Shown: positions 14,338 to 61,393 of the stretch, in pieces
Position numbering within the stretch: position 1 is the first letter of the stretch
Layout: each line of letters begins with the position of its first letter
Assembly (NCBI GenBank): GCA_030280995.1
Contig: JASXTE010000007.1
Span: 10,321,001 to 10,385,000, forward strand
Direction: 5' to 3'
Origin: Hemileia vastatrix
Taxonomy: Eukaryota > Basidiomycota > Pucciniomycetes > Pucciniales > Zaghouaniaceae
Length of the DNA stretch: 64,000 nucleotides
The notes under the pieces: model-generated
Database searches by the model: none
Told to the model about the DNA's origin: nothing
Seen by the model: only the letters and a program-made list of their open reading frames with translations
Program-made: the position numbers and the translations under genes

Positions 14338-14684
14338 TTCTTTTTATTACCCATAATTTTTTACATTATTTTTTTGTTTTTATTTGAAATGGACAAAATG
14401 TTAATGGAAATGTTCATCATGATAGTAAATCTTCAATCTCTTCTTGAGATGAATTACAATTGATTTAAAATACAAATTAAAGATTTTTTCAATATAGAAA
14501 AAGGAAAGACTTCAAAATAAACTGTTATATTGCTCTGTGAAGAATATGATTTATGGCCAGAATATTAAAACATGATTTATAGAAAAATGTCTTTTTTAAA
14601 CATTTTTTAAAAAGATAAATACATTGGTGCTTTAAAATTTCTACAATCTAAAATTACTGATATCCAATACTAAAACATTGGTGG

Positions 14685-15821
14685 TGTCGGTCAGTCGTCT
14701 AGAAGAGGTAAGAAAAATAGGAGAAAAAGGAGGAGAGAAGGAGGAGGACAAAGGAAAATAAAGAAATAAACCAAATATATATATATATATTATTTGAGAG
14801 GGAGACAACAGTGAGCAACTTTGAGAGGTGACAAAAACTTAGATTTTATTAATAATAATATTATTAAATGTAAGGGTAATGCGCAGCAAACAATTTTAAT
14901 TACTATTAGACTTAAAGCAACCTTTGATTTGTTGTATAGAATTTAAATTAGATTTGTATTACTAATAAAAAAAATATAAATGTAATAAAATGGTTATTTA
15001 ATTTGTTGAGTGTGTAATAAGTGATGAGGCTACAGGGGATTATCCAAGGCCCTTTTATAGGCAATGGGTCCTCTGAAGCGCTACTATATTTGTAAATACA
15101 ATGATTAAAATGGAATAAAACAAATATATCAAAAGAGTAAATGAAACATAACAATATAGAGATAAACATGAAACAAATAATTAAAAGCCAAATAAGAATC
15201 CAATTTCCCCGCCATTAATTCCCAAATCAGTAAGTGACAATAGTGAATAACTAAACAAGATTGGAACATAGGAACTATGAGAAGTATAATTCCAAACAGA
15301 TGGTACAATCTGATTAAAGGATATTTTAAGTGAAACAAAAAATACTTTGACACAACAAAACATGTAATTAATCTCAATTTAGTATAAATTAATTTATTTG
15401 TTTTTTTTCTAACACAATTAAGGGTCAAAAGAAGCGTCATTAATTATTGTTTAGTTTTATATGAGAGGTGTTATTTAATATAGAAATTTAAATAATTAAT
15501 TTAAATATATTATAAATCAATTTTACACTTGTAATTATAATATATGTTTTTTAATTAATTAAATATAAATTTATAATTATTAAATACATAAAAATGCGCC
15601 ATTATTTGTAGAATATATTATATTATGCTCAATTTAATTGTATATAAAAATATATATAACCAATAAATTTAATGTAACACTTGTATATAATAAAATTCTT
15701 ATATAATTTCATTATGCAATAAAATATTAAGTTATATTCATTAAATACAATTTTTACCCACTCTTTAAGGTTTTATAAGTTATATATCATTTACTGGACT
15801 CCTGGAATAGCCTGGCTGACA
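14685..15821 (-). repeat. 3' LTR of element A
   Basis: 1137 bp, TGTCGGTCAG at the left edge to GGCTGACA at the right edge, pairing with 22694-23827. TATAAAAGG lies on the minus strand at 15051-15059. Confidence 0.92.
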
Positions 15822-15855: not shown

Positions 15856-17178
15856 CTAAGATTTTTTCTTTTTGTATTTTTTCAACAGAGCAGGCAGATT
15901 TGAAATTTCCTTGCCAGGTATCCATGTATCATGTTCAGATGATTTGTTCTTATATCTCAATAAATATTCAGTACCTCTCTCAGAAGTGATAATTCTATCA
16001 TTGAGAATTTTATCAATTTCTGCTGTTTCTGTGACTTCCTGAGGGTTCTTCTTAGGTCTTCCTCTTCTTTTTGGAAATAAGTCACTGTTGGAAGTATAAG
16101 GTTTAAGCAAAGAAATGGGAAAGACAGGATGTTTCCTATCATATGGAGAATACAATACAACTTCTACTGCATTATCACCAACCATTCTTTTAACAACAAA
16201 TGGTCCTACAAAAGGATCTTTTAATTTGTGGTTACCCTGTAAATTGAAATGGACAGTAGAGATCAACACTTCATCACCCTTGTTAAATGTGTATTCTTTA
16301 TGGGATTTATCCCATTTTTTCTTTTCATATTCAAATGCTTTATCAATACAACTCTGAGCATGTTTTCTGCATAGCTGTTGCATTTGCATAAAAGATTTTA
16401 CACCAGGGTGTAGTTCCAACTTAGGTAATTTATTATTGAGAATCTGAGCAGGAGTGTTTGGGACATAACCTAGCCAAAGCTCAAAAGGCTTTTTCTCAGT
16501 GACAGAATGAACAGTGCTATTATATGCAAATTCAAGACCAGGCAAAAGAGTGACCCAATCATGAGTAAATCTGTCATTGTCTTTATATTCTAAACCAAAG
16601 GCACAATACCTTCTAATCATATCTTCCAGAGTTTGAATCATTCTTTCAGCTAGACCATCAGTCTGAGGATGGTGAGCTGTAGACAATTTTAACTCACAGC
16701 CACAAATATCCATCAAAGAGGTCCAAAACTCAGAAGTGAATTTTGGATCCCTATCAGAGATAATGGCTTTTGGAAAACCAATAATATTAAACATGTAAGA
16801 CCACCATAAGAAAGCTAATTCTTTGGTGGATACATCTTTGTGGGTTGGAATAAATTTGCACATTTTTGTGAATCTATCCACTATTACCCAACAAGAGTTA
16901 AAGCTGTCTTTACCTGCAACAGGAAGACCAGTGACAAAATCCATATTAATGATTTGCCAGGGAGCACTAGGTGCTTCAATATGTTGTAATAACCCTGCTC
17001 TCTTACCTGTTAACCTTTTAGATTTTTGGCAGGAATCACAAGATTCAACATATAATTTTGTGTCTTCAGACATATTAGCCCACCATGCAGTGTTTTTGAT
17101 TCTAATCAATGTTTTTTCAAGATCAAAATGACCAGCTAATATGTCATCATGACAAAGTTTGAGGATAGTTTCTTTCAT
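15856..17178 (-). pseudogene. Integrase with AT-hook-like motif and chromodomain (element A)
   Basis: A 440-codon open stretch, in the +1 frame relative to the upstream pol frame because of a frameshift near 17200-17400. The zinc-binding HHCC residues are H10, H17, C47 and C50. The catalytic triad is D80 (MDFVTGLP), D142 (SDRDPKF) and E178 (GLAERM), with the 35-residue D-E spacing typical of integrases. It is followed by a GPY/F-type segment (DPFVGPFVV), a basic KRRGRPKK stretch with the RGRP core of an AT-hook, and a C-terminal chromodomain (EYLLRYKNKSSEHDTWIP). The chromodomain would steer integration to modified chromatin. Catalytic residues are intact, although the copy is cut off from its reverse transcriptase by the frameshift. 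Confidence 0.92.
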
Positions 17179-17410: not shown

Positions 17411-18790
17411 CTATAAATATACCTCATCTTCAGGTACATAAGCAGGATTGGAGTCATTATTTGGCAGAGGCAATCTGGAGAGCATATCAACATTAGAATG
17501 AACATTTCCAGCTCTATGGATAATAGTCATCCTTCCTCTGTATTCTTGAACAGCAAGTTGCCACCTGAACATATGTCTGTTAGGTGTTTTGAGGTTTAAG
17601 AGAGATTTCACAGCACTACAGTCAGTTACCAACTCAAATTTTTGGTCATCCAAGTAGTAATGAAGTTTCTCAAGAGCCCAAACAACTGCTAAGCACTCCA
17701 ATTGAGTGGCACCATATTTCAATTCACTATTTCTTAAGGTTCTTGAAATATAACAAATTACAAACTCTGAGGATTTATCATTAATAATTTGCTTTTGGTG
17801 AAGGGCAGCACCCAGACCAATAAAGCTAGCATCTGTATAAAGGACAAATGGCTTGTTAAAATCTGGAAGGGCCAATATAGGGGCTGTCATTAAGCAACTT
17901 TTCAATGTATCAAAAGCTTTCTGACAGTCATTATTCCAGAGAAAAGCAACATCTTTTCTGGTCAGTTTTGTAAGAGGCAAGGCTATGACCTGATAATTTT
18001 TAATATATTGTCTATAATAGCCACACATACCCAAAAAACTTTGGATTTCTCTTACAGAAGTTGGTGCTTTCACATTTTGAATGGCAGCAACTTTATTATG
18101 GTCTACACAAATTTGTAAGCCTGACACAACATGGCCAAGGACTTTCAAAGATTGAAAACCATATTTACACTTTTTTAAAGATAAGGTCATATTTATTTCA
18201 TCCATTTTTTGGAAAACTCTATTCAAGTGAGTCATATGTTCATCAAAAGTTTTAGAAAAAACAATAATATCATCAATATAAACCATGAGCCAACCTTCAA
18301 TAATTTCTTGATGGAAAGTGTTATCCATGACTTTCTGGAAAACTGAAGGAGCATTTTTAGGGCCAAATGGCATCCTAACATACTTATATATTCCCATATG
18401 AGTAGCAATAAGCAAAAAATTTTGAGAATTTTTCTCAACTGGAACTTGATGATAACCTTTATTACCATCCAGACAACTAATAAATTTTGCACCTTGCAAG
18501 GTAGCATGTATTGAATTAATTCTGGGTAAAGGATAAATATCATCAACAGTATAAGTATTTAAAGCTCTGTAATCTCCACATAATCTAGCTTTATCTTTTT
18601 CATATGAAATCAAGACTGGGGAGATGACACAATATTTGGGGGTGACATCCACTTTATTAATGATATTAATTTTCAATAATGTTTCAATATTATCTTCAAT
18701 ATCTTTTCTTTTTGATGGAGAAGCAGGATATGGTTTTTTCTTAAGGGAAGGAGGAATATCACTCAAATTACAGGATAAGGTAATTTTCAT
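17411..18790 (-). pseudogene. Reverse transcriptase and RNase H (element A)
   Basis: 459 codons in the Gag frame, following an in-frame stop at 18794. Reverse transcriptase shows LDGNKGYHQV (D108), the catalytic YIDD at residues 171-174, and LGHVVSG. RNase H follows, with D320 (LYTDASF), E365 and D390 (TDCSAVK), ending near VDMLSRLPLPNND. A stop at 17411 and a frameshift then separate it from integrase. In element B the same region reads through without interruption, which shows that these are lesions and not gene boundaries. Confidence 0.93.
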
Positions 18791-18793
18791 CTC

Positions 18794-20146
18794 TTACTGA
18801 ACAATTCCCAAGACATGAGAACCATGAGAAAAAGCCATAGGGAAAGAGGTAATAGAGGCAACAATAGAATCCCTTTGTTCACTAGTCAACTGATCACCAA
18901 AAGAAGCGGTATTTATTTCATGTAATAAATCATCCATTTCAGTTGTTGTTCTACCTTTACATTGGGTCAGTGAGTTACAAGATTTCAACAAATGCCCAGA
19001 AGGTCTAGGAGAAGAAATTTTGAATTTTCTTTTCCCATTCATTCCTAAGGTAAAGCAATTATTTGCTGGGTCCAGTTTCACACCAAACATGGTTAAAATA
19101 TCATTTCCCATAATAAACCAATTGCTCAAATTATCATTTTTCATGACAACAAACTCACAAATAGCTCTGACAAAACCACCATTATATTTGAAGAATACAG
19201 AGGTTTTGTATTTGCCAATAGGAAATAAGGTAGAGCCATACCCTCTCCATTTTTCAGAAGTTATAGGCAATAATTTACTCAAATATTCCTTATCCACTGA
19301 AGCAAAAGCTTTTTCAGATACTACACTTCCTCCAGCACCAGAATCATGAACTACATCAACATTTTTACCATTAATGATAACAGGTGCCTTTAAAGGGGAT
19401 ATAGGAATAGAATTGTTAGGAATATCTTTAATTATCTCAGCATTTTCTACTGAAGATAAATTCAATACACAATCTTCAGATATATTATTTGAATAATGGA
19501 CATCATGTTCCAACATTAAAACATCTTTAACAGATTCATTGTCATAGGAGATATTACTTTCACAGTCACTGGAAGAATTATTGACATCAAGTTCAACTTC
19601 ATCAGTGTCTTCATTTTGTTCAACAAGATGAATTTTCTTGTCACAAACATGACCCTTCTGCCACGGTTTGTTACATTCATAACAAGTATTTGTTGCATAT
19701 TTTTTAGGTGCAACTGGGGCAGAGGGTTTACCAGATTTTTCTGGGAGCTTTATAGAAGGTTTATTCTGATCATTATAAGATTTACTAAGGTAATTCTTTG
19801 GTTCATATCTATGGTTGAGTAGTACTTCATTACAGATATTAATGAAAGAAGAATTTTCCCTTACATGCTCAGTTCTAGCAACAATCAAATCCCTAAGAGA
19901 ATTTGGTAATTTATACAAGATTTTATCTCTCCAAATATCATAATCCATCTTTGGATCAATTGCTCTAAGGATTTTAGTTATTTTCATCAGAAAAACAATG
20001 GGCTTTTCAACAGAGGAGGATACATATCTAGTATTCTCATACAGTCTCTGCTGAGCTAACCTGAATTTTGAACCACCAAACTGATTCTCAATCAAGGATT
20101 TCAAATCATTCCATGTATAATGATTGTTATCTAAGAGGACAGATTC
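18794..20146 (-). pseudogene. Gag C-terminal half and protease (element A)
   Basis: It continues the Gag frame after the stop at 20147-20149. A Gag helical region (LRAIDPKMDYDIWRDKILY) is followed by a zinc knuckle of the CX2CX7HXC type (C141, C144, H152, C154, counting from the Met at 20104). Next come an acidic linker and the protease core VVHDSGAGGSVVSEKAF, with catalytic D254 of DSG. The frame stops at 18794 between the protease and reverse transcriptase. Element B has Lys-Glu-Glu at that junction, so the stop is secondary. Confidence 0.88.
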
Positions 20147-22006
20147 TTACCACATCAAGGATACATTGGAAAATAAAGAAATTAGCTTAGAAACAATTTC
20201 CCCATCAGGTAGTTTATAAGATCTCTTTAAATTATCAATTCTCTGGATAAAGTGTTGCCAATCAGAGGAAGAATCACCATCAAAGGTAGGATATTGGTCT
20301 AACTTAGGCCAATTTTTCTGACTACTGGGATGGTCCACTTTTTGGTTTGAATTATTCATTATTAATAATTCCTGAAGTTTAGCCAGGTGTTCAGAAATTT
20401 CATTATTTACAGAAACAGCTGGTGCATGACCATCACAAGATTTTTTGCTAGTAGCAAAAGATTTTACAGACTCATTGTCAGTTTGTTTAATTGTTGAAAT
20501 ATGAGGAAGAAAGGATGAACTTTGTTCAGGTTTTTTCCCTTTATTTTTATGCAGCTTATTTACAGAAATCTCATTTAATTCATTATTGATGGTTAAGGTT
20601 GAGAACTTTTCCTGTAGGTCAGACACATAGTTTCTTATTCTTGGAATTTCAGACATCTGGTCATTTACTTTTGCAAGAGATAGAACATTTCTGTCCTCAG
20701 AAACTGAGTGTTTGGTACTTAGTGCATGGAAATCATTTTTTAGCTTCTTAAACTCATTTTGCAGAGATTTTATTTCATTTTTGAATGAATAATTTTCCTC
20801 AATAAGGGGTTTCAATTCACTCAAGGTCTTATGTAGACTGATATTTCTATCTGAGATAGCTCTATGGTCACTTCTTATTTGTTTTTGTTGACTTAGAACA
20901 ATATTCAAGGTTTCTTTGATTTTTAAATAAGCTGTATCTTGTACAGAAGAACTCACTTTACATTGCAAGTGTAAATTATTTAATCTATCATTTTCATGGA
21001 TTAACACATCTCTCACATGTTTGTCTTTCACTATATTAAAATCAAGGGTATCTTTCAATATTTCCTCAGAAGTTTTTTCAATTAAGGTATAGATTTCAGG
21101 GGGAACAGAATCATTTTTAATTGCAAGAGAGGGATTAATTAAAGATGTAGAAGTTAAATGTAAAGGTTTATCAAATGACAATTTGCTAATTACATCAATA
21201 GGGCTACTAGTTACAGGAAGCTGTCTTTTAACAGGTTTAACTGTTCTTTCACCATGTTCAATAATATTACCTGCAGAAGAAGATTTATTAGAAAACATAC
21301 CCAAGTGACTATCAACCAAATTACTTACCATGGCAGAGGAGGAAACTTCCCCTGGGACTGGGTTTGGGATTGTGCTTGGGTTTTCTTTCTCCTGCCTTGT
21401 TGGTAGGGATGATGAGGTGGATGGAAATTGGGTGTTCTGGATGGGCCAGGCTGATGATGAGGAGGGTGTTGCACATTCTGTTGGTAGTGACTCATTAGAT
21501 AATCCCATTTCCATTGCTCTACTTCCATAGTATTTGGATTTTGGATGGTTGAGCTGGGTGGCTGTGAAGGTTGAGCCTGAAACTGAGGCTGATTGGGAGG
21601 CAACTGAGGAGGGGCCTGGGCCTGAATCTGGTTCCTGAGTTCTTGGACCTGATCCCACAATGTGTCTACCTTTGCTTTGTACGTCATATTTTCTGTCTTC
21701 AACTCTTTTATATGACTGGATAGGTTTCTGATTTGTTGTGGCAGAGGAAGATTTTTTATTTTGAAGCCTTTTGGAAGACCTTCTTGAGGCACTAGAGGCT
21801 TTACTTCCTTCTGTGGTACTGGGGGAAGGGGGTTTGGTTTGTTTGCATTTCCTGTCATTTCCACATCCTGCAGTATGTGAATTCTTTGTGTTAGTATAAG
21901 ATTTTTTATGACCAGCTTTAGAAGAACTTACAGTGTCAGCATCATAGTCAATTTCTATTTCATCCACTTGCATGTTATCCATTTTTTCTGCCAAATTGTT
22001 GGACAT
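20147..22006 (-). pseudogene. Gag N-terminal region (element A)
   Basis: A 619-codon frame beginning with the ATG at 22006. Its N-terminal 250 residues are low-complexity, Ser/Pro/Lys-rich and poorly conserved. The middle (roughly residues 340-480) is predicted coiled coil, rich in Lys/Glu/Asn with heptads. The C-terminal part has the capsid-like block YPTFDGDSSSDWQHFIQRID. A TAA stop follows LMW. B has an intact TAT at that codon but a stop at the next one, and C has TATGAA, so the ancestral sequence read through into the second half of Gag. Residues about 48-227 are overprinted by the nested frame at 21864-21325. Confidence 0.85.
21325..21864 (-). CDS. Overlapping ORF nested in gag, +1 frame (ORFx, element A copy)
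   Basis: About 177-179 codons, completely inside gag and shifted +1 relative to it. The first in-frame ATG is at 21858; the open frame begins at GTG 21864. Order of features: a Pro-rich start, the block EGLPKGFKIKNLPLPQQIRN, a predicted coiled coil (LSSHIKELKTENMTYKAKVD and onward), a Gln/Pro-rich stretch, a Trp-rich block (EQWKWDYL), then PGPSR, a His/Pro block ending HHPYQQGRRKK, and a terminal PLPW before TAA. The same frame, in the same position and with the same block order, occurs in B (39976-39416) and C (61257-60764). Translation would need leaky scanning past the gag ATG about 140 nt upstream, or reinitiation. No domain family recognised. Function unknown; a structural or nucleic-acid-binding accessory factor is possible. 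Confidence 0.6.
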   Translation of the reverse strand: MEMTGNANKPNPLPPVPQKEVKPLVPQEGLPKGFKIKNLPLPQQIRNLSSHIKELKTENMTYKAKVDTLWDQVQELRNQIQAQAPPQLPPNQPQFQAQPSQPPSSTIQNPNTMEVEQWKWDYLMSHYQQNVQHPPHHQPGPSRTPNFHPPHHPYQQGRRKKTQAQSQTQSQGKFPPLPW

Positions 22007-22693
22007 ACTAGTGGGAAGATTTTAATTTACTTATTATTTATTAAAAAAATAATAAAGGTTAGTCAATAATTGCTCCAAATAATAAAAAAATATTTTATTA
22101 ATTAAATTATAGAAAAAATAATTTTCAATATAAAGTAATAATTAAAAAAAAATTAATTTTAAAAAAATGGATTGCAAGGTTAAATTGGGAATAACAATCA
22201 AGTTAATTCAACCAATTAATTACCAATATTAAATATGGCAATATATTTGGGACTAAGCACAATGTACTTTTAAGTCAACCAAAATTAACAATAATTAATA
22301 ATAAAAAAAAATTAAATTAATAATTCAATTTGTATTAATAAAAAATGTCAATTCTTCTAGGACTAAGAGGATTTAACACTCTATAATGCTCAACTAGGAA
22401 AAAAAAATTTTAAAAATTGAACACTTACACTCAGTGAATCAGCAATTAAGCCACAATCACTGTTATTTCAATAAAAATATAGTAATATGAGTGAGAGGCG
22501 CAAAGGTGAACTTACTATAGTGATCGAAAAATCACTTCAAAATAATATAAAAATTAATATTATATAAACCTAAGATGTCGAACCCAAGTTCGAAACACAG
22601 TCGCGGCAAAAGTTTCGTTTTGCTAGGTGGTCCGTGCGTTTTGTCGTTCGTCGCCAGGCTCAATCGTTGTCGTCGTTTGGAAAGGTCCCCAGT
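22007..22693 (-). other. 5' leader of element A
   Basis: An untranslated AT-rich leader between the 5' LTR and gag. It contains two degenerate copies of the GGACTAA...GTCAACT motif that is repeated in the leaders of B and C. At 22586-22606 it has a tRNA T-arm-like stretch (plus strand AAGTTCGAAACACAGTCGCG), about 88 bp from the LTR. No canonical primer-binding site beginning with TGG abuts the LTR. Confidence 0.6.
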
Positions 22694-23827
22694 TGTCGGT
22701 CAATCGTCTAGAAGAGGTAAGGAAAATAGGAGAAAAGGAGGAGAGAAGGAGGAGGACAAGGGAAAATAAAGAAATAAATCAAAATAATATATATTTAATT
22801 TATTTGAGAGGGAAACAACAGTGAGCAACTTTGACAGGTGACAAAAACTTAGATTTTATTAACAATAATATTTTTAAATGTAAGGGTTCTGCGCGGCTAA
22901 CAATTTTAATTACTATCAGACTTAAAGCAACCTTTAATTTGTTATATAGACTTTAAATTAGATTTGTATTACTAATAAAAAATATAAACGTAATAAAATA
23001 GTTATTTAATTTGTTGAGTGTGTAATAAGTGATGAGGCTACAGGGGATTATCCAAGGCCCTTTTATAGGCAATGGGTCCTCTGAAGTGCTACTATCTTTG
23101 TAAATACAATGATTAGAATAGAATAAAACAAATATATCAAAGAATAAATGAAACATGACAATATAGAGAAAAACATGTAACAATTAATTAAAACCCCAAT
23201 TAAGAATCCAATTTTCCCGTCATTAATTCCCAAATCAGTAAGTGAAAATAGTGAATAACTAAACAAGATTGGAACATAGGAACTATGAGAAAAATAATTC
23301 CAAACAGATGGTACAGTCTGATTAAATGATATTTTAAGTGAAACAAAAAATACTTTGACGCAACAAAACATGTAATTAATCTCAATTTAGTCTAAATTAA
23401 TTTATTTGTTTTTTCTAACACAATTAAGGGTCAAAAGAAGCGTCATTAAATTTTTTTTAGTATCATATGAGAGGTATTATTTAATATATAAATTTAAGTA
23501 ATTAATTTATATATAATATAAGTCAATTTTACACTTATAATTATAATATATGTTTTTCAATTAATTAAATATAAATTTATAATTATTAAATACATAAAAA
23601 TGCCCCATTATTTGTAGAATATATTATATTATGTTCAATTTAACTGTATATAAAAATATATATAACCAATAAATTTAATGTAACACTTGTATATAATAAA
23701 ATACTTATATAATTTCATTATGCAATAAAATATTAAGTTATATTCATTAAATACAATTCTTACCCACTCTTTAAGGTTTTATAAGTTATATATCATTTAC
23801 TGGACTCCTGGAATAGCCTGGCTGACA
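22694..23827 (-). repeat. 5' LTR of element A
   Basis: 1134 bp with TGTC...GACA ends, pairing with 14685-15821. A strong TATAAAAGG on the minus strand at 23059-23067 marks the likely promoter, so U3 is about 760 bp and R-U5 about 340 bp. Its outer flank (ATAAG) joins directly onto the satellite monomer array. Confidence 0.92.
23059..23067 (-). promoter_or_regulatory. TATA box of element A 5' LTR
   Basis: TATAAAAGG followed by GCCTTGGATAATCCCC on the minus strand. The same block recurs at 6857, 15051, 56384 and, in plus orientation, at 62592. This conservation across LTRs supports a promoter role. Confidence 0.6.
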
Positions 23828-23831
23828 ATAA

Positions 23832-26800
23832 GTATCCAGCACAAGTTTGGCCAAACTTGTGCTGGACACTTTTATGATGGAGAGTAGCTAGGGTAGAATT
23901 TTTCTTCAGTTCATCTAGTATTTCTTACAAACATGTCTACTTGTATTTTATCTTTGTTCCTCACTCATAAATATCATTTGATTAATTTTTGTTCTCCATT
24001 ATATTATTAATTTTATAAGTATAGAAAAAACTCATGTGCCAAATGCATACCAGGTGATGTTATGCCATTTATAATATTATTAAATAAAAGTATAAAAATA
24101 TGAAAAAAGTTTATTTTAAAAATTATTAATTGATATCCAAAAGCAAAATTAGGAATAAAAAATTAAGTTAAAGGGATCAAATATGAAAAAAAAAATCCAA
24201 GTATTATTCCTACTATCAAAGGCCAGTAGAGGTGTTGAAGCAAATGAGAGCCATCAGTTATAAATTGTACTAAATTGACTTTTTTTTAAAGATAAAAAAT
24301 TGTGCACCTGTGGTTTGGATGAACTCTAGGTAGAAAATTTGGCTATATAAAACTACTTCTAGTGAAGTTTTTTATCAAATATTTTTTTTATTGCCATAGA
24401 GAGAATTGATCTCATATGACTGCACCTGACCAAAAGTGTCCAGCACAAGTTCGTCCGAACTAGTGCTGGACACTTTTTTGATGGTGAGTATCTAGGGTGC
24501 AGCTCTTCTTCAGTGCAACTGGTATTTTTTTAAAACATATCCACTGGTATTTGATCTTTCTGTTTTATTAATATTTCATCATTTGATCAATTTTTTGTCA
24601 CCAGTATATTATTATTTTTATTAGTATAGCAAAAAAACATGTGCCAAATGCTTACAGGGTGATGTTAAACATATAATAATTTTATTAAATACGGGTAAAG
24701 AATTATGAAGATAATTTTTTTTACATAAAATTAATTGATATCTAAAAGAAAAAAAGGGATAAAAAGAAATAGGTTGAATAAAAGGGATTTTATATGAAAT
24801 TAAAAATATAAGCTAAATGCCTAATTTCAAGGCTCAGAAGAGGTGTTGGATAAAATGGGCATCATCAGGAATAAAATTGTACTTAATTTGATTTTTTGAA
24901 AAACTAAATGAAGTTTTCAACTGATTTTTTTCCAAAATTTAGTTGGACACTTTGTCTATATCAAATTACTTCTAGTACCATGATAGACCAAGTTAAATCC
25001 TCATTTCCATATGCAGGATTGATCCCATATGGCTGGACCAGGCCAAAGGTGTCAACCACAAGTTTGAGAATTCTTCTGGTGGACACTTTTATGATGGACA
25101 GTAGTAGGGTGCAAGTCTTCATTAGTTAATCTAGTATTACTCATAAACATTTCCAACTTATTTTTGGCCAAAAATCAGGTGAAAAGTTTGTCCATATCAA
25201 ATTACTTATAATGCCATGATTGACTAAAAATTGATTCTCATTGCCATATAGAGAGTTGATCCCATATGACTGGATCTGGCAAATTTGTCACCACAATTTT
25301 TGATAAACTTAAGTTTGAAAATTTTATGATGGAAAGTAATTGCAAGTCTTCTTCATTTCATCAATTAATCCTCATAAAAACTTCCACCTGTATTTTGGCC
25401 AAACTTTAGGTGGACACTTTGGCCATATTAATTTAATTCTAGTTCCATGTTGATAAAAAACTGATACTTATTGCCATATATAGATATTAAACCCATCATA
25501 CTGTGCCTTTCCAAAAGTGTCTACCTGAATTATGGCTAAACCTCAGTTGGAGACTTTTATGATGCAGAGTAGCTAGGGCAAAAGTATTCTTCAGTTAATT
25601 TGGTATTCATAATAAATTTATCCTCCTGAAGTTCAGCCTAACTTCAGGTGGACAATTTTGGAAAGCACCAGTTAATCACTATCCATCAAAAAAGTGTTCA
25701 CCAAAATTTTGACTAAACTTGTGGTGGACCCCTTTGATCAGCCACAGTTAGATGAGATCAACTCTTTAGATGGAAATGAGGATGATGTTTTGGTCAATCA
25801 TGGAAATAGAAGTAGTTTGATGTGGCCAAATTACCCCCCTGAAGGTCAGACAAACCTCACAAGGACACTTTTTAGCAGGGAGTAACTGAGAAAAATCCAT
25901 TTGTCAGAAAAAAATCTTTTATTGGATAGATGCCAAGGTTTCATTCTTGTGTATTATGGTCAGTATTAATTTTGAAAGTGTCTGTCCAAGCAATTTCATT
26001 GTCCATCATGACACACTTTGTTTTAAATGTTTCAAACTGCGTGATACAGTATTAAGGTGTCACATAGTATAATTAAGTTCTATTAATTGCCCTCCTATGA
26101 TGCCTAAATTTATAATTTAATATCTTACATAATACTTTTTTTTATATAAATTCATCAATATTTTATTTTATTATCAAATTTAATAGAGCAAGTTTCATGA
26201 ATTATTATATATGCATACACCATGGGAAATCCAGAGGTGAATTGCTAGCAATCCCCTCTCTTGAAATTTAGAGTTTCCCTTAATTATGCCAGGTTTATGA
26301 ATACTTTATAAACATAAGTAAATTAGAGTTAGATTTACATGTATTCTCAGATTGATTATAGACAGAATATCAACTGATTCCAAATTATGCACAAGTTTAT
26401 CCTCCAGAACTTGATTTTGGTCCTCTGTTGAGCACAAATTTAGCACAAATTGATCTAATCTAAGCTTATGCATATATAATAATTCAGGATACTTGCTCTA
26501 TTAAATTTGATAATAAAATATAATATTGATGAATTTATATAAAAAAAAATTATTATGTAAGATATTAAATTATAAGTTTAGGTATCATAGGAGGGCACTT
26601 AATATAACTTGATTGTACTATGTGACACCTTAATAATGTATCACGCAGTTTGAAACATTTAAAACAAAATGTTATATGATGGACAATGAAATTGCTTGGA
26701 CAGACACTTTCAAAATTAATACTGACCATAATACACAAGAATGAAACCTTAGCATCTATCCAATAAAAGATTTTCCTTCTGACAAATGGATTTTTCTCAG

Positions 26801-28858
26801 TTACTCCCTGCTAAAAAGTGTCCTTGTGAGGTTTGTCTGACCTTCAGGGGGGTAATTTGGCCACATCAAACTACTTCTATTTCCATGATTTACCAAAACA
26901 TTATCCTCATTTCCATCTAAAGAGTTGATCTCATCTAACTGTGGCTGATCAAAGGGGTCCACCACATGTTTAGCTAAAATTTTGTTGAACACTTTTTTGA
27001 TGGATAGTGACTAACTGGTGCTTTCTGAAATTTTCCACCTGAAGTTAGGCTAAACTTCAGGAGGATAAATTTATTATGAATACCAAATTAACTGAAGAAT
27101 ATTTTTGCCCTAGCTACTCTGCATCATGAAAGTGTCCAACTGAGGTTTAGCCGTAATTCAGGTAGAAACTTTTGGAAAGGCACAGTATGATGGGTTTAAT
27201 ATCTATATATGGCAATAAGTATCAGTTTTTTATCAACATGGAACTAGAATTAAATTAATATGGCCAAAGTGTCCACCTAAAGTTTGGCCAAAATACAGGT
27301 GGAAGTTTTTATGAGGATTAATTGATGAAATGAAGAAGACTTGCAATTACTTTCCATCATAAAATTTTCAAACTTAAGTTTATCAAAAATTGTGGTGACA
27401 AATTTGCCAGATCCAGTCATATGGGATCAACTCTCTATATGGAAATGAGAATCAATTTTTATTCAATCATGGCATTAGAAGTAATTTGATATGGACAAAC
27501 TTTCCACCTGATTTTTGGCCAAAAATAAGTTGGAAATGTTTATGAGTAATACTAGATTAACTAAAGAAGACTTGCACCCTACTACTGTCCATCATAAAAG
27601 TGTCCACCAGAAGAATTCTCAAAATTGTGGTTGACACCTTTGGCCTGGTCCAGCCATATGGGATCAATCCTGCATATGGAAATGAGGATTTAATTTGGTC
27701 CATCATGGTACTAGAAGTAATTTGATATAGACAAAGTGTCCAACTAAATTTTGGAAATAAATCAGTTGAAAACTTCATTTAGTTTTTCAAAAAATCAAAT
27801 TAAGTACAATTTTATTCCTGATGATTCCCATTTTATCCAACACCTCTTCTGAGCCTTGAAAGTAGGCATTTAGCTTGAATTTTTAATTTCATATAAAATC
27901 CCTTTTATTCAACCTATTTCTTTTTATCCCTTTTTTTTCTTTTAGATATCAATTAATTTTATGTAAAACAAATTATTTTCATAATTTTTTTACCTGTATT
28001 TAATAAAATTATTAAAGGTTTAACATCACCCTGGTAGCATTTGGCAGATGTTTTTTTGCTATACTAATAAAAATAATTATATACTGGTGACAAAAAATTG
28101 ATCAAATGATAAATTATTAATAAAACAGAAAGATCAAATACCAGTGGATATGTTTTAGAAAAATACCAGTTGCACTGAAGAAGAGCTGCACCCTAGATAC
28201 TCACCATCAAAAAAGTGTCCAGCACAAGTTCAACCGAACTTGTGCTGGACAATTTTGGTCAGTTTCAGTAATATGAGATCAATTCTCGCTATGGCAATGA
28301 AAAAAAATTATTTAATAAAAAACTTCACTAGAAGTAGTTTTACATAGCCAAATTTTCTATCTAGAGATCATCCAAACCACAGGTGCACAATTTTTTATCT
28401 TTAAAAAAAAGTCAATTTAGTATAATTTATCCCTGATGGCTCTCATTTGCTTCAACACCTCTACTAACCTTTGATAGTAGGAATATTACTTGGATTTCTT
28501 TTTTCATATTTGATCCCTTTAACTTAATTTTTTATTCCTAATATTGCTTTTGGATATCAATTAATAATTTTTAAAATAAACTATTTTCATATTTTTATAC
28601 ATTTATTAAATAATAATATAAATGGCATAACATCACCTGGTATGCATTTGGCACATGAGTTTTTTCTATACTTATAAAATTAATAATATAATGGAGACCA
28701 AAAATTAATCAAATGATATTTATGAGTGAGGAACAAAGATAAAATACCGGTATACATGTTTGTAAGAAATACTAGATGAACTGAAGAAAAATTCTACCCT
28801 AGCTACTCTCCATCATAAAAGTGTCCAGCACAAGTTTGGCCAAACTTGTGCTGGACAC
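23832..28858. repeat. Large inverted repeat, arms ~2.39 kb, 250-bp spacer
   Basis: The left arm 23832-26217 is the reverse complement of the right arm 26468-28858 at high identity across several monomers. For example, the 63-codon frame at 25694-25885 (plus) reappears almost unchanged at 26992-26801 (minus). The spacer 26218-26467 is a copy of dispersed repeat R2, also found at 45135-45385 in the opposite orientation. Confidence 0.9.
26218..26467 (-). repeat. Dispersed repeat R2 at the centre of the large inverted repeat
   Basis: It matches 45135-45385 in reverse complement. Shared blocks include GAGGACCAAAATCAAGTTCT and GTTGATATTCTGTCTATAAT. It ends with GATTGCTAGCA...CACCATGG, the same terminal motif as R1. 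Confidence 0.75.
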
Positions 28859-31800
28859 TTATGGTCAGGTGCAGTCAGGTGGGAGCAATTCTCTCTATGG
28901 AAATGAAGATAAATTTTTGATAAAAAATTACACTAGAAGTAGTTTGATATGGCAAAATTTTCATGATGAAGTTTTGGTAAAGCTCAAGTGGATTTTTTTT
29001 TATTTTTACAAAAAAGAAAATTTAGTGCAAGTTTAGCCCTGATTGTGCTAATTTGATTCAACATCTCTTTTTTCTGTTTGTGGCAGGAATTTAACTTGGA
29101 TTTTTTTTTCATTTTTGATTTCTTTTATTTTACTTTATTCCTCTCATATTGCTTTTGGATAGAAGTTTAAATTTTGTAAAACAAATCATTTTCATATTTT
29201 TTTACTTTTATTTAATAATATTATAAAAGTTGTAACATCACACAGTATTCATCTGGCACACAAGTTTTTTCTATACTGATAATATTAATAATATAATGGT
29301 GACAAAAAATTAATCAATTGATAAATATGAGTGAGGCACAAAGATTTAATAACAGTGGACATGTTTATAAGAAATTCCAGATGATTTAAAATGACTTTCA
29401 CCCTGGCTACTCTCCATGATAAAAGTGTCCAGCACAAGTTTGGCCAAACTTGTGCTGGACACTTTTGGTTGCATTCTGTCAGATGCAATCAATTCTTTTT
29501 ATGTAAATGAGACTTAATGATTACTCCATCATTTCACTGAAAGTAGTTTTATATGGACAAATTGTCCCCTGGAAGTTTGTCCAAACCTAAGGTAGACAAT
29601 TTTATACTTTAGTTAAAAGTAAATTTTATCCATGTTAATCTATGATGGTGCCCATTTTTTCTGAAGCCTCTACTGGCTCATGATAGCAGAAATTATACTT
29701 AATATCTTTATTTCATTTTTGATCTCTTTAATTTTAATTTTACCCTTTTATTTATCCTTTATCTTTTAAATATCAATTTTATTTTGGTAAAACTGATAAC
29801 TTTCACATTTTTTTACATTTATTATATAATATTATTAAAGTTGTAAAATCACACAGTGTACATTCAGTACACATGTTTTTTCTATACTAAAAACATTAAT
29901 AATATAATGGTGACTAAAAAATACTCAAAAAATAAATATGGATGACACAGAAAGATCAAATACCCATAGACAATTTTAAAATGAATATTAGATTAACTGA
30001 AGAAGACTTGCACCCTAGCTACTCTCGATCATTAAATTGTCCAGCACAAGTTCATCTGAGCTTGTGCTGGACACTTTTGGTTGCATGCAGTCAGATGGGA
30101 TAAATTTACTCAATGGAAGTTAAAATGAATTTTTTCTCAATCATTGCACAGGAAGTAGTTATATACTGCTATACTATCCTTCTGATTTTTTTGAAAACCT
30201 CAGGTGGACACTTTTATTAATTAAAAAAAAATAAAAAATATATTCCGAATCTAGAACTGGCGGTGCAATTTTGGTCTGAAAACTCAAATTTTCTTTGATG
30301 GCAGAAATTTTATTTGAATGTTTAATTTCATATTTAATCACTTTTATTTTACTTTTTTATTCCTCTTTTTGCTTTAAAATATTAATTTATTTATTGTAAA
30401 ACTAATACTTTTCATTTTTTTTTACTTTTATTTAATAAAATTATTAAAGATGTAGCATCTCCCAGTATGTATTTGGCTTTTAATTTTTTTCAATACTAAT
30501 AACATTAATAGTATAATGGTGAAAAACAATGAATCAAATGATAAATATGAATGACACAGAAAGATCATATACAAGTGGATTTGTTTATAAGGAATACCTG
30601 ATGAACTGAAGAAGACCTGCACCCTAGATACTCACCATCACAAAAGTGTCCAGCATAAGTTCAGCAGAACTTGTGCTGGACACTTTTGGTTGCATGCAGT
30701 CAGATGGGATAAATTTACTCTATGGAAATGAAAATGACATTTTGCTCAATCATTGCACAATAAGTAGTTTGATATTGCCAAAATGTCCTCCTGATGATTT
30801 TTCAAAACTCATCAAGACACTTTATTTGGTTAAAGAAAAAAGAAAATATAGTCCAAGTTTAGCCCTGGTGGTGCACATTTGATCTAACACCTCTACTTGT
30901 TATTGATAGTGGGAATTTTCCTTAGATTTTTTTTTCTTATTTTATCCCTTTTATGTTACTTTTTTATTACTCATATTGATTTGGGTATCAATTTTTAATT
31001 TTTAAAATAAATAATTTTCATACTCTTATACCTTTATTTAATAATATATGATTAAAGATGGAACACCACCTGGTATTCATTCTTCACACAAGTTATTACT
31101 ATAGTAATAACGTTAATAATATAATGATGAAAAAAAATTAATCAAATTGTAAATTTAAATGACACAGAGAGATCAAATACCAGTGGTAATGTTTATAAGA
31201 AATCCCTTTTGAGTTTAAGAAGATTTGTTGTATGCCTACTCTCAATTATAAAAGTGTCCATCACAAGTTCGGCCAAAATTGTGCTGGACACTTTTGGTTG
31301 CATGAAGCCATATGAGATAAATTCTCTCTATGGCAATGAAAATGATATTTCACTCAATTATTGAAGTAAAGAATGTTTAATATTGTAAAAGTTTCCCCTG
31401 GAAGTCTGTCCAAAACTCAGCTCAAAATTTGTTAGCTATAAATAAAAGTAAGTTTAGAGCAAGTCTTGACCTAGGGGTTCGCAACTGTCCCAACACCACT
31501 TCTGGCTCTTGATAGTAAAATTTTACTTGTATTTTTTATTTTATATTTGATCCCATTTATTTTCATTTTACTTTTCTATTACTCTTCTTAATTTTAAATA
31601 TCAATTTATTTTTTTAAAAACTAAACATATTCTTTTTATTTAACTTTATATAATAATATTATTAAAGGTGCAACATCACCAATTTTGCATTTGGCATGCA
31701 GGTTTTTTCTATACTAGAAACATTAATAATATATATGGTGACAAAACATTAATTATAAGATAAATATGAATGATAAAAAAAAGTTTAAAAACCAATAGAA

Positions 31801-38390: not shown

Positions 38391-40115
38391 TTAATACCAC
38401 ATCAGGGCAACATTAGTGAACAAAGAAATTAACTTGGACACAATTTCCTCATCTGGGAGTTTGTAAGAATTTTTTAAGTTATCAATTCTGCAAATAAATT
38501 GTTGCCAATCAGAGGAAGAATCACCATCAAATGTTGGGTACTGGTCAAGTTTTGGCCAATTCTTTTGATTTGAAGGAGTCTCCTTAGTACTAGCTTGTTT
38601 CTTAGTAAGAAGCAGCTGTAATTTCTCTAATTGTGCTGAAATCTCATTGTTTAATCCTTCTGTTGCAGATCCTGGTGCATCATCAGTTTTTGATGGAAAC
38701 TCAGTGTTATCAACAGGTATTTCTGGAGCTATTTTTACTTTAGATGAGCTAGCCACAGGTACTATTTGAGCATCCTGCACTATATGTTCCTTCACATAAA
38801 TGTCAGAATATTTTTGGTCATTTAACAATGAGTTCAATTTTTCTTCAATGGTTGTTAGTCTTGTTTTCATTCTTGGAAGACTAGATAAACTCTCATTGAT
38901 AGTTGCAAAAGATATTTGATTTTTATTTTGAAAAGATGACAAATGGTCATTCAATCTTTTCAGATTTATCTTATCTATCTCTACCTCCTGGCAACAGGCA
39001 GATACAGTATCTTTTAGTTTAGACAAATCATTTTTTATATTTTGCCATAAAGCAACTTTCTTTTCATGGGTTGCTTTTTAATGAGACAATTCATCAGAGA
39101 CTCTCTGTGATTCACTTCTTAATGCTTGATAAACCTGATCAGTTAACAAACTATTATATCTCTGAGTCAATTGCATATTGTTCATTATATGATTTTGCTT
39201 GGCAATAATATCTCTCAAGTGCTCATCATTAATTCTTGCTACATCTGGAGTGTTTCTCAATAAAGAAACTGAGTAACTTTCCAGATTCTCATAGAACTCA
39301 GGGTCAAGAGTCTCATCAATCACAGCCATCTCAGGATTAATCATTGAGGTAGCAATTAAAAGTAAAGGATTTGATACATGAGTGATTTTTCTACTACTCC
39401 CAGCCTCTATAGGTCTCAAAGTTTTATCCTCCCTTCCTGATTTACCTGAAGGAACAGAGTCAGCCACAAGAAAAGGCACTTGAGAATCAATAGAGGGACG
39501 TACCAGGGTTTGCTGGGTATCACCATATTGGTCTTTCTTCTTCTTTTGCCTCCTTGATAAGGGTGGGGAGGAGTGGGGTTGACCTGGTTGGGCCTTGATG
39601 GACCTGCCTGAGGTAACTGATGCTGGTTTTGAGCCAGGTAGTCCCACTGAGTGTTCAGCCAGTCCCACTGCCACTTGGACACTTCCACCTTCTCTTGGGA
39701 CTGGGGAGCCAATTGTTGTTGATCCCTGGGAGGAAGAAATTTCTTCTTCTCTTGGAGAAAAGTATCTGTTCTTCTCACCTTTTCTTCCAAAGCATCTACC
39801 CTTACCTTTAGTCTCAAGCTTTCTGTCCTTAACTCCTTTATGTGAGTAGACAGATTATTTACCTGCTGAGAAAATTGCATCTTTTTTATCCTGAAGCCTT
39901 TTGGAAGCTCTTCTGGTGGGTTTATCATAGGCTTCTGATCCTGAGTTGTGTCCACTAGGATTTCTACTTCTTCCATCTCTACATCCTGTTTGGGGCAAGG
40001 ATTTATTAGTTTGAGAAATTCTTCTTGTTAAAGGAGAACTTACAGAAGTAGGCTGATCATAATCAATTAAGTCTAGTTCTTCTTCACGTGCAGAAGAACC
40101 ACTTTGGTCAGTCAT
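38391..40115 (-). pseudogene. Gag N-terminal region (element B)
   Basis: It starts with the ATG at 40115 (MTDQSGSSAREEELDLIDYD). Stops in frame lie at 39855, 39078 and 38391. It has the same plan as A: a Ser-rich basic N-terminus (RRASKRLQDKK), a low-complexity segment overprinted by ORFx, a coiled-coil middle, and the capsid-like block YPTFDGDSSSDWQQFICRID. The stop at 39855 lies inside the region where ORFx remains open. Confidence 0.85.
39416..39976 (-). CDS. Overlapping ORF nested in gag, +1 frame (ORFx, element B copy)
   Basis: The ATG at 39976 lies 139 nt downstream of the gag ATG, in the +1 frame as in A. Conserved blocks in order: PPEELPKGFRIKK, coiled coil NNLSTHIKELRTESLRLKV, EKVEVSKWQWDWLNTQWDYL, QAGPSRPNQVNPTPPHPYQ, GGKRRRKT and SKPW. 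The TAA that ends the A and C copies after PW is TAC here, so the frame runs on for about 28 extra codons. The frame stays open across the position where the Gag frame of this same copy carries a stop. Confidence 0.6.
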   Translation of the reverse strand: MEEVEILVDTTQDQKPMINPPEELPKGFRIKKMQFSQQVNNLSTHIKELRTESLRLKVRVDALEEKVRRTDTFLQEKKKFLPPRDQQQLAPQSQEKVEVSKWQWDWLNTQWDYLAQNQHQLPQAGPSRPNQVNPTPPHPYQGGKRRRKTNMVIPSKPWYVPLLILKCLFLWLTLFLQVNQEGRIKL

Positions 40116-43795: not shown

Positions 43796-44390
43796 TTAAT
43801 CAATAGTTCTTTTTAATATTATAAATTTTTTGATTAAATAAAATGGTAATAATGAATTATATTTTTCATCCACAATTCCACTCTAATGATTCCCACTGCA
43901 CAAAAAGGGTTCACTCAGTCCTTTCTTTACTGCTTGTGCATATATTTTATTGCCCACAGTACTACAATTTTTTGCAGTGATTATCCCACATCTGATTCAG
44001 GAATATTTTTGAACAATATAAGTTTTTTTCACAAAAGACCTTATCATATCCAATATCCCACAAAAAATACAACCTGTTTTTGTATTAAAACCCATTAATT
44101 ATTAAGAAATTGTTAAAATAATTAGATTAGACCCTGGCACATCTAGATCCATACCAACCAACCTAAAGTCTTTTCAATATTGAAAACAATTAAATAAAAT
44201 TATGATATCATACTAAATTATGGGCACCAACCATAATTCAGCACTTCTCATTTGCTCTGCTACAAAATGAGTGCATGTAGCATTTTTCTAACGTCGGACT
44301 GTTTTTCTTCCTTCCCTCACACCTTTAGTCCAGAATGAAAATTTAGTATCAGTTTTGGTCAAAATGGTTTGCCAGTGTTATCAGTATGCA
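43796..44390. other. AT-rich sequence, no gene seen
   Basis: It borders the satellite array. No coding frame with family resemblance and no clear repeat. Confidence 0.4.
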
Positions 44391-59880: not shown

Positions 59881-61393
59881 CTATAATTGGGCAGTAATCT
59901 TATTTTTTATCCCTTCTGTAGATGAACAAGGTACATCATCAATTTTTGATGGAAACTCAGTATTACCTACAGGTATTTCTGGCACTAATTTTACTTTAAA
60001 TGAACTAGGTACAGGTGCAATTGGATTATCCTGTGCAACTGGTTCTTTCAAAGGAATGTCATAAAACTTTTGGTCATGTAACAATTAATTCAATTTCTCT
60101 TCAATGGTTGTTAGCCTATTCTTCATTCTTGGAATACTAGATAAACTCTAATTGATGGTTGCAAAAGGTAACTGGTTCTTATTTTGAAAAGATGAATAAT
60201 GTTCATCTAATCTTTTCAAGTTCAACTTATTTCCCTCTAGCTCCTGGAAACAGATAGGCAAAGTATCTTTTAATTTAGACAAATCATTCTTGATATATTT
60301 CCACAAAGTAACTTTCTTTTCATGAGTTACTTTGTATTTGAATAAATAATCAGAAACTCTTTGTAATTCACTCCTCAATGCTTTATACCCTTGTTCAGTT
60401 AACAAACTGTTAAATTTCTGAGTCAATTGCATGATGTTCATTATTTGATTTTTTTAGCAATAATATTCCTCAAATATTCATCATTGATGTTAGCTACATC
60501 TGGAGTATTTGTCAATAGGGAAACAGAATAATTTTCCATATTCTCATAAAATTCAGGATCAAGTGTTTCATCAATAAGAGCAATATCAAGATTTATCATT
60601 GAAATAGCAATCAATACCAAAGGATTATTTACATTAGAATATTGGGCAATCTGTCTACTACAGTCAGTCTCTATTGGTCTCAAAGTCTCATCTCCTCTTC
60701 CAGAATTACCTGGAAGAACTGAATTAGTAACAAGAAAAGGTACTTGAGATTCAATAGAGGGGGTTACCATGGCTTTTGCAAGAGCTGGATGTGATTTTTT
60801 TTCCTCTTTCTTCCTCTTTGGTAGGGATGAGTAGGTGTTGGGTTGAACTGATGGGTTCTGGAAGGACCTGCCTGAGGTGCTTGCTGTTGTTGTGGTTTTT
60901 TTTGGGCCTGTAGATAGTTCCACTGGGTGTTTAGCCATTCCCATTTCCATTTTAAAACTTCCACCTTTTCCTGTTTTTGAGGGGCCAATCTTGGAAGGGA
61001 TTTTGGGGCAGAAGGAGGTTTCCACTTCTCTTGAAAATGGACTCTATTTTTCTTACCTTTTCTCCTAGATACTCCGCTTTTGACCTCAGTTTGAGATTTT
61101 CCGACCTCAACTCCATGATGTGAGTGTAGAGATTGCTGACTTTCTGATGCAAGGGAATCTTTTTTATCTAGAATACCTTTGGAAGCTCTTCAGGGGGGCT
61201 GATTGAAGGCTTTTGATCCAGAGAAGTTTTCTCCACTTTTATTTCTATTTCTTGCATTGCCACATCCTAATTGATCCAGTAAATGATTAATTTGAGCAAT
61301 TTTTGTAGTCAAAGGAGAACTTACAGAAGTTTCATCATAATCAATCAAATCTAGTTCCTCATCATGGCCAGCAGAAGCACTTTGATCAGTAAT
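59881..61393 (-). pseudogene. Gag N-terminal region (element C), start codon lost
   Basis: It aligns with B from the first residue, but the initiator ATG is ATT at 61393-61391 (then TDQSASAGHDEELDLIDYD). A stop follows about 70 codons in. An indel near 61000 shifts the frame to 61025-60441, and another lesion gives 60441-60148 and 60084-59881. Coiled-coil and QVPFLV...LLTNTPDV blocks resemble element B. Confidence 0.8.
60764..61257 (-). pseudogene. Overlapping ORF nested in gag (ORFx, element C copy)
   Basis: The ATG at 61257 is at the same alignment position as in B, 136 nt after the Gag start. Blocks in order: QEIEIKVEKTSLDQKPSISP, PPEELPKVF, a stop, IKKIPLHQKVSNLYTHIMEL and its coiled coil, a frameshift near 61000 shared with gag, then EKVEVLKWKWEWLNTQWNYL, QAGPSRTHQFNPTPTHPYQR, GRKRKK and a final QKPW with TAA. 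The PW-stop ending is the same as in A. Confidence 0.55.

What the first reader, a model, noticed from the sequence alone, without database searches (positions are those of the whole stretch)
21325..21864. Conserved overprinted ORF (ORFx) inside gag of three related chromoviruses
In elements A (21864-21325), B (39976-39416) and C (61257-60764) a second frame of about 165-187 codons lies within gag, always +1 relative to Gag and starting about 136-148 nt after the Gag start. Its product keeps an ordered set of blocks in all three copies: LPKGF/LPKVF + IKK, a coiled coil (SNL/NNL-TH-ELR), a Trp block (KWKWEWLNTQW type), GPSR, HPYQ + RRKK-like basic run, and a final PW. The PW is followed by TAA in A and C. 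Over the same bases the Gag-frame translations share almost nothing beyond a few residues. In B, ORFx stays open across a stop in Gag. That is the pattern expected if the overlapping frame, not Gag, was under protein-level selection. I know of no described accessory protein like this in fungal Ty3 elements.
Basis: partly seen in the sequence, partly recalled or inferred. Interest (0 to 1): 0.88.

Follow-up and report, generated by a model that had tools for sequence, protein, structure and literature searches.

The report
Spliced hidden gene inside retrotransposon gag
Thousands of jumping-gene copies in this large eukaryotic (probably fungal) genome carry a second, conserved protein frame written over the start of their capsid gene and reached by splicing out a tiny intron, a retrovirus-like trick that we did not find described for this group of mobile elements.

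Summary
The overprinted frame is real, and it is a spliced exon. In families A, B and C a mini-intron (64, 58 and 58 nt) lies between the Gag ATG and ORFx. Removing it joins a 24-25 codon exon 1 in frame to ORFx; a second 58-nt intron begins at the conserved PW. In A and B both introns are shown by spliced copies integrated in the genome: intron-1 junctions at 17 (A) and 27 (B) places, intron-2 junctions at 28 and 41, reversed-pattern controls 0. The unspliced donor occurs at 2030 and 3191 places.

Both frames are maintained, differently. ORFx dN/dS between a B copy and six C loci is 0.31-0.39; the Gag frame is near neutral, 0.70-0.82. Yet given the ORFx protein, 7-17 Gag-frame stops are expected and none is seen in four of five copies tested. 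Unspliced RNA most likely makes the ~2050-codon Gag-Pol, spliced RNA a ~185-205 aa accessory protein: acidic start, coiled coil, Trp motif, basic tail. No relative was found in the protein collection searched. Splicing is shown by retrocopies; translation and function are inferred.

The parts
22694..23827 (-). 5' LTR of element A (TGTCAG...CCGACA)
   Evidence: self-comparison, 94% identical to 14685-15821; ends read
22007..22693 (-). leader of element A, free of ATG
   Evidence: 0 ATG in 686 nt against 10.6 expected from a first-order model; 685 nt before the B ATG: 0 against 9.2
21932..22006 (-). exon 1 of A: start codon and 25 codons (acidic EIEIDYD), common to the Gag-Pol frame and the spliced ORFx product
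21868..21931 (-). intron 1 of A, 64 nt: GTAAGT ... TACTAAC ... CTGCAG; no stop in the Gag frame when retained
   Evidence: spliced junction at 17 genome places, retained donor at 2030
21329..21867 (-). exon 2 of A = ORFx (180 codons, the W completed by the first base of intron 2), ending PW-TAA
21271..21328 (-). intron 2 of A, 58 nt: GTAAGT ... CTAAT ... CTGCAG; removal still gives PW-TAA
   Evidence: spliced junction at 28 genome places
20147..22006 (-). Gag reading frame of the window A copy (Gag by position; no Pfam gag match), open across introns and ORFx; an in-frame stop follows (copy decayed)
18794..20104 (-). rest of Gag with aspartyl protease of A
   Evidence: weak protease matches, below the curated cut-off
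17411..18790 (-). reverse transcriptase and RNase H of A
   Evidence: Pfam RVT_1, RT_RNaseH
15856..17178 (-). integrase with chromodomain of A
   Evidence: Pfam Integrase_H2C2, Chromo above cut-off; rve just below it
14685..15821 (-). 3' LTR of element A
40044..40115 (-). exon 1 of B, 24 codons (EEELDLIDYD)
39986..40043 (-). intron 1 of B, 58 nt: GTAAGT ... AACTAAT ... AACAG
   Evidence: exactly 58 nt missing in 13 of 13 fetched junction copies; junction at 27 places
39504..39985 (-). exon 2 of B = ORFx to PW
39446..39503 (-). intron 2 of B, 58 nt (GTACGT ... TTCAG)
   Evidence: exactly 58 nt missing in 3 of 13 fetched junction copies; junction at 41 places
61267..61324 (-). intron 1 of C, 58 nt (GTAAGT ... 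AATTAAT ... TTAG), by similarity only
60768..61266 (-). exon 2 of C, decayed ORFx (stop and frame shift)
60710..60767 (-). intron 2 of C, 58 nt, by similarity only

Best explanation
In this clade of chromodomain Ty3/Gypsy elements the 5' end of the gag-pol frame is dual coding, and intron retention decides which protein is made. Translation starts at the exon-1 ATG, the first ATG after an ATG-free leader in A and B. If both mini-introns are retained, the ribosome reads one frame through intron 1, exon 2 and intron 2 into Gag-Pol (about 2050 codons in A). If intron 1 (64 or 58 nt, both 1 mod 3) is spliced out, the frame changes and the ribosome makes a separate protein of about 185-205 aa: the shared acidic N-terminus plus ORFx, ending at PW. 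The ORFx protein is under amino-acid selection; the Gag-frame peptide over the same bases is a nearly unconstrained but stop-free spacer. Shown: gene anatomy, removal of both introns from RNA that was reverse transcribed, selection on ORFx, stop avoidance in the Gag frame. Inferred: translation of both products. Least certain: function. My best guess is a coiled-coil accessory protein that binds the element's RNA or particles through its basic tail, possibly helping unspliced RNA to be exported or packaged, as Rev-type proteins do.
For: Splice signals GTAAGT / branch-like CTAAC, CTAAT or TTAAT / AG at intron 1 of A, B and C. Intron-1 junction at 17 A and 27 B places, intron-2 junction at 28 A and 41 B places, all reversed-pattern controls 0; 13 of 13 fetched B copies lack exactly 58 nt, 3 of them also the second 58 nt. 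In the tree of 42 B rows intron-1 loss needs 7 changes, at least 3 forced by well supported branches. Substitutions, B copy L016 against six C loci, by Gag codon position: exon 2 443/182/213 (Gag position 1 is ORFx position 3), intron 1 35/31/30, exon 1 13/15/43. Conditional dN/dS 0.31-0.39 ORFx, 0.70-0.82 Gag. A-B identity by ORFx codon position 92/103/60 of 157. Gag-frame stops 0 in four of five copies tested and 1 in the fifth, against 7-17 expected. 30 of 129 A copies found by downstream Gag are listed with a 2062-codon stop-to-stop frame; in 5 of the 6 of those held as loci the frame is open from the exon-1 ATG to the end of the held DNA, the sixth has a stop. Leader ATG 0 against 10.6 (A) and 9.2 (B) expected.
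Against: No RNA or peptide data were available. About 99% of places keep intron 1 (17 of 2047 A and 27 of 3218 B lack it), so spliced RNA is rarely reverse transcribed; expected if unspliced RNA is the genome, but the level of spliced mRNA stays unknown. Intron-less B rows cluster more than chance on the tree (7 changes, shuffled mean 11.3), so some descend from others. Given the Gag protein, ORFx openness alone is only weakly unusual in A (expected 1.4-1.9 stops, P 0.08-0.16), more so in B (3.0-4.4, P 0.004-0.024). Gag-frame similarity is little above the null (identity 1.3-1.6 sd, BLOSUM 1.6-2.2 sd). Two of four B-like comparisons do not show ORFx constraint clearly. Intron 2 has no evident coding purpose: 21 of 28 A places without it show no intron-1 junction. 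In B, ORFx runs 28 codons past PW if intron 2 is retained. The structure model is low-confidence outside the coiled coil (mean pLDDT 62).
Confidence: 0.85

Rival explanations
1. ORFx is the real N-terminal exon of Gag, joined to the rest of Gag by splicing both introns, and the unspliced Gag frame is open by accident.
For: Two real introns flank ORFx; ORFx is the conserved frame.
Against: Splicing intron 2 does not return to the Gag frame: the joined sequence still gives W-TAA (A; B). The unspliced Gag frame is free of stops far beyond chance and 30 of 129 A copies are listed with about 2062 codons.
Confidence: 0.05
2. The spliced RNA is bicistronic: ORFx stops at TAA inside ATGGTAA, and ribosomes restart at that ATG to make a shorter Gag-Pol.
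For: In A and C the ORFx stop overlaps an ATG in the Gag frame in good context, GCCATGG.
Against: The B copies read there have CCCTGGTAC, without ATG or stop (L016, L017). It does not explain why the Gag frame upstream stays open. About 99% of integrated places keep intron 1.
Confidence: 0.08
3. ORFx is reached by leaky scanning to its internal ATG on unspliced RNA.
For: A conserved internal ATG (DVEM or DVAM) starts the conserved part; B has only three ATGs before it, the start included.
Against: In A seven ATGs precede it, the start included; splicing at the acceptor 9 nt upstream is demonstrated. It may add to expression but is not needed.
Confidence: 0.07
4. ORFx is an accidental open frame and its conservation reflects the Gag frame or descent.
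For: Given the Gag protein, few ORFx stops are expected in A (1.4-1.9). Two of ten pair comparisons give an ORFx dN/dS interval including 1.
Against: Substitutions concentrate at ORFx third positions (443 against 182 and 213); ORFx is more conserved than Gag over the same bases between A and B and between B and C.
Confidence: 0.02

Closest known systems
BARE1 (barley Ty1/Copia) alternatively spliced intron, PMC3735527 (abstract and passages read)
   Same: A small intron inside one long gag-pol frame; splicing shifts the frame, so unspliced and spliced RNA make different products and unspliced RNA is the genome.
   Different: In BARE1 splicing truncates to Gag alone; here it opens a different, overlapping, selected protein. 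[quoted passage not shown] here they are found in the genome assembly. Copia, not Gypsy; plant host.
SpIREs, spliced integrated copies of human L1, PMC5860796 (abstract and outline read)
   Same: Copies integrated from spliced element RNA reveal the introns.
   Different: L1 is not an LTR element, and its abstract calls SpIREs generally dead ends and splicing inhibitory; here the spliced frame is under selection.
Retroviral accessory genes made from spliced RNA (tat/rev of lentiviruses, Rex of HTLV; recalled, not fetched)
   Same: Overlapping small regulatory proteins from spliced RNA; unspliced RNA for Gag-Pol and genome.
   Different: Position at the 5' end of gag, sharing Gag's first 24-25 codons; function untested; no relation to them was tested beyond the Pfam, PDB and protein searches.
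Ogre/Tat elements with an extra ORF and a spliced intron (recalled; one search listed no paper devoted to them)
   Same: Ty3/Gypsy element with an additional ORF near gag and partial splicing, as recalled.
   Different: As recalled, the extra ORF is separate from gag and the intron lies elsewhere; no overprinting recalled.
Fungal chromoviruses surveyed in PMC2864245 (four passages read)
   Same: Chromodomain Gypsy elements; a legend marks an additional ORF of unknown function in some.
   Different: The passages read describe no ORF overlapping gag and no intron in the elements.

Membership tests
Chromovirus (chromodomain Ty3/Gypsy, Metaviridae) | LTRs as direct repeats | tested here: met
   14685-15821 and 22694-23827, 94% identical
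Chromovirus (chromodomain Ty3/Gypsy, Metaviridae) | Gypsy order RT-RNase H before integrase | tested here: met
   RVT_1 and RT_RNaseH at 17411-18790, integrase at 15856-17178, minus strand
Chromovirus (chromodomain Ty3/Gypsy, Metaviridae) | chromodomain at the integrase C-terminus | tested here: met
   Chromo, 1.5e-09, residues 387-438 of 440 (element A only)
Overlapping (overprinted) gene pair | second frame under amino-acid selection | tested here: met
   ORFx dN/dS 0.31-0.39 against six C loci; 0.22-0.93 against four B-like copies
Overlapping (overprinted) gene pair | first frame also maintained | tested here: met
   stop-free in four of five copies against 7-17 stops expected; amino-acid constraint in that frame weak
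Spliced accessory gene of retroviral type | produced from spliced RNA while genome RNA is unspliced | tested here: met
   spliced junction copies, with both families mostly intron-retaining; indirect, from integrated copies
Spliced accessory gene of retroviral type | protein made and acting on the element's RNA or host | not testable with these tools
BARE1-type Gag-only splicing | splicing truncates Gag-Pol to Gag | tested here: not met
   intron-1 splicing leads into ORFx, which ends before downstream Gag
Known protein family for ORFx | match above a curated cut-off or homolog | tested here: not met
   only weak matches below cut-off in Pfam; none in protein searches; best PDB match 0.21

The most novel reading that the evidence does not exclude
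A Ty3/Gypsy LTR retrotransposon lineage evolved, apart from retroviruses, a two-stage retrovirus-like programme: two frame-changing mini-introns act as a switch between an early spliced regulatory protein (coiled-coil multimer with a basic, RNA-binding-like tail, Rev/Rex-like in logic) and late unspliced Gag-Pol and genome RNA, with the regulator overprinted on a spacer of Gag.
Probability: 0.3. Interest if true: 0.9.

Novelty: new variant of a known kind. Interest (0 to 1): 0.77.

Why it matters
LTR retrotransposons are usually described as gag-pol with at most an extra gene beside it (recalled). A conserved overprinted gene controlled by intron retention would mean that coding tricks thought typical of complex retroviruses also arose in Metaviridae. 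Because thousands of copies include natural retrocopies of the spliced RNAs, the system gives a genomic record of which RNAs were reverse transcribed, and it warns that TE annotation which takes the longest frame will miss such genes.

Tried and rejected
Searches without result: ORFx A protein, the window Gag ORF and the ORFx alignment in the protein collection (none at E up to 10, 1 and 1); RT in viral contigs (4 pattern matches, none a relative); ORFx alignment against the PDB (best 0.21, a LINE-1 ORF1p chain, taken as chance). The structure model is a coiled-coil helix 42-84 and a low-confidence helix 112-132; no fold search was run on it.

Considered and rejected: stop-restart at ATGGTAA, ORFx as spliced N-terminus of Gag, leaky scanning (see rivals). 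Per-copy stop counts were dropped as a selection test, since copies decay after insertion and the B loci had been chosen by ORFx similarity. One search used loci in contig orientation and its counts for minus-strand loci are void; one search replaces it. In one search the downstream-Gag values for L011 and L016 include 13-14 stops because those copies are frame-shifted. In one search L036 was skipped and the window B copy left out as the same locus as L009. L073 aligned poorly downstream (gag-only row) and was kept in the totals; it was also printed without frames because the acceptor pattern was not found.

Full report
What is there. The window lies in a 747.6 Mb assembly of 791 contigs, unnamed; size, mini-introns and element types suggest a fungus, possibly a rust, which is inference only. 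Element A (LTRs 14685-15821 and 22694-23827) has Gag (by position; no Pfam gag match), a weak protease match, RT-RNase H, and integrase ending in a chromodomain, so it is a chromovirus. B and C are related (B-C 80% identical over 3.5 kb; A-B 78% over 4.5 kb from late gag through pol).

The frame. Exon-2 ORFx is open for 180 codons in A and 189 in B; in the window copy of C it is broken. A and B ORFx proteins are identical at 64 of 157 aligned residues, the Gag-frame peptides over the same bases at 35 of 150; with ORFx fixed and codons redrawn, 28.8 +/- 4.0 would be expected in the Gag frame. A second pair of copies gave 65/157 and 34/150.

The introns. Directly before ORFx all three elements have GTAAGT, a branch-like CTAAC, CTAAT or TTAAT, and AG|GATGT; lengths are 64 nt in A and 58 nt in B and C. 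Removal joins the exon-1 ATG in frame to ORFx (in the window C copy that ATG is lost). Just after PW all three have a 58-nt stretch from GTA to AG|GTAA. To test whether these are real introns I searched the whole genome for exon-exon junctions, which are expected in DNA only if spliced RNA was reverse transcribed. Intron 1: 17 places in A (12 exact, 5 with one mismatch, up to 2 allowed) and 27 in B (11 with one, 7 with two, 9 with three mismatches, 3 allowed; none exact, because the window copy I took the pattern from differs at its first base). Intron 2: 28 in A (19 exact) and 41 in B (26 exact). The reversed-pattern control was 0 each time. By position, 7 of the 17 A and 7 of the 27 B intron-1 junction places also show the intron-2 junction. 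Of the 27 B intron-1 places 13 were fetched: all 13 lack exactly 58 nt there, 3 also lack exactly 58 nt at intron 2, and two carry other deletions inside exon 2 (67 nt in L081, 21 nt in L083). The retained donor is found at 2030 A and 3191 B places, so about 0.8% of each lacks intron 1. In a tree of 42 B rows (29 with, 13 without intron 1) the losses need 7 changes, at least 3 forced by well supported branches; they are also more clustered than shuffled labels (mean 11.3), so some intron-less copies descend from others (the bootstrap had not fully settled).

The start. The 686-nt leader of A has no ATG (10.6 expected) and 685 nt before the B ATG have none (9.2 expected); about 700 nt before C have 4 against 9.0. 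Exon 1 therefore most likely holds the scanned start for both products. Leaky scanning to the internal ORFx ATG would have to pass seven ATGs in A, three in B, the start included.

Selection. Between B copy L016 and six C loci (one the window copy), substitutions in exon 2 fall 443/182/213 on Gag positions 1/2/3, that is, mostly on ORFx third positions; intron 1 is flat (35/31/30); exon 1 shows its own third-position excess (13/15/43); intron 2 is 24/9/36; Gag-only sequence downstream is 473/335/503, a weak third-position excess in these decayed copies, with one poorly aligned row. The six comparisons share one reference and are not independent. Classifying every change by its effect in both frames, with B copy L017 as reference, gives ORFx dN/dS 0.31-0.39 and Gag dN/dS 0.70-0.82, with 5 of 6 Gag intervals including 1. 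Against four B-like copies the same test gave ORFx 0.22, 0.27, 0.52 and 0.93, the last two with intervals including 1, and Gag 0.48, 0.69, 2.22 and 3.26. A-B identity by ORFx codon position is 92/103/60 of 157.

Is the Gag frame then passive? No. Redrawing codons of the ORFx protein predicts 14-17 Gag-frame stops with pol codon usage, 7-8 with its own usage, 11-12 by shuffling codon order; observed 0 in four of five copies and 1 in the fifth (the window B copy); zero was reached in at most 1 of 3000 draws. A and B agree at only 60 of 157 ORFx third positions, so this is not mere shared descent, though they are related. In the reverse direction ORFx openness is weakly unusual in A (P 0.08-0.16) and more so in B (0.004-0.024). 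Of 129 A copies found by downstream Gag, 30 are listed with a 2062-codon stop-to-stop frame, a count that skips stops inside the match. The six of these held as loci were checked: five are open from the exon-1 ATG to the end of the held DNA (1119 codons), the sixth stops at codon 417. Codon preference scores over exon 2 are higher in the Gag frame than in ORFx (0.06-0.16 against -0.05 to -0.11), which would fit ORFx being the younger frame, but exon 2 has an unusual composition (47% GC) and I do not lean on it.

How it probably works. Unspliced RNA is genome and Gag-Pol messenger; both introns are stop-free in the Gag frame of A and have lengths of 1 mod 3, so retention is readable and splicing of intron 1 switches frame. 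Spliced RNA makes exon 1 + ORFx. The role of intron 2 is unclear: its removal leaves PW-TAA in A, and in B turns a 28-codon tail into a stop after W. The protein has an acidic start, a confident helix within exon-2 residues 42-84, a low-confidence helix at 112-132 over the Trp motif, and a basic stretch (sequence). A regulator or cofactor acting on the element's RNA or particles is the best guess and unproven.

Known relatives. BARE1 splices a frame-shifting intron within one gag-pol frame to make Gag alone (PMC3735527, abstract and passages); SpIREs are the L1 precedent for integrated spliced copies (PMC5860796, abstract and outline). Ten answered searches of the open library (an eleventh was rejected) listed no paper that I recognised as describing an overprinted spliced gene in gag of a Ty3/Gypsy element; apart from three papers opened in part I saw only listings with abstract openings, and subscription literature is mostly not covered.

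Noticed in passing
window 582-2929 (-): Another retroelement with a 524-codon Gag-like ORF holding a CCHC motif (CSYCSRRGHRSNDC) and an aspartyl protease ORF overlapping it by 7 nt; a frame shift is likely.
   Followed up: no
window 23822-33260 and 41957-43858: Diverged satellite with a period near 605 bases next to element A, including a 2.4 kb inverted repeat (23822-26217 against 26467-28868, 96%) around a spacer that is 85% like 45133-45384.
   Followed up: no
G000:C128:18353955-18355543: An A copy with the intron-1 junction whose Gag frame is listed as 3024 codons, about 960 more than the 2062 of others; the distance from junction to Gag is about 138 nt short.
   Followed up: no
junction places: 21 of 28 A places lacking intron 2 show no intron-1 junction; intron 2 appears to be spliced on its own, with no evident product.
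   Followed up: partly
B family, 8th base after the intron-2 acceptor: 40 of 41 intron-2-less B places read T there, whereas three intron-retaining copies read (window B, L016, L017) have A, which makes a second AG; a subfamily may splice intron 2 more, or another acceptor may be used.
   Followed up: no
window 22007-22693 (-): ATG-free leader in an AT-rich element (0 against 10.6 expected); also seen before the B ATG.
   Followed up: yes
window 61697-62990 and 56232-57202: A-type LTR sequences in opposite orientations flank element C, so the C region looks rearranged or nested.
   Followed up: no
window 23828-23832 and 14680-14684 (-): The five bases flanking the two LTRs of A differ, so no target duplication is evident for this copy.
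   Followed up: no
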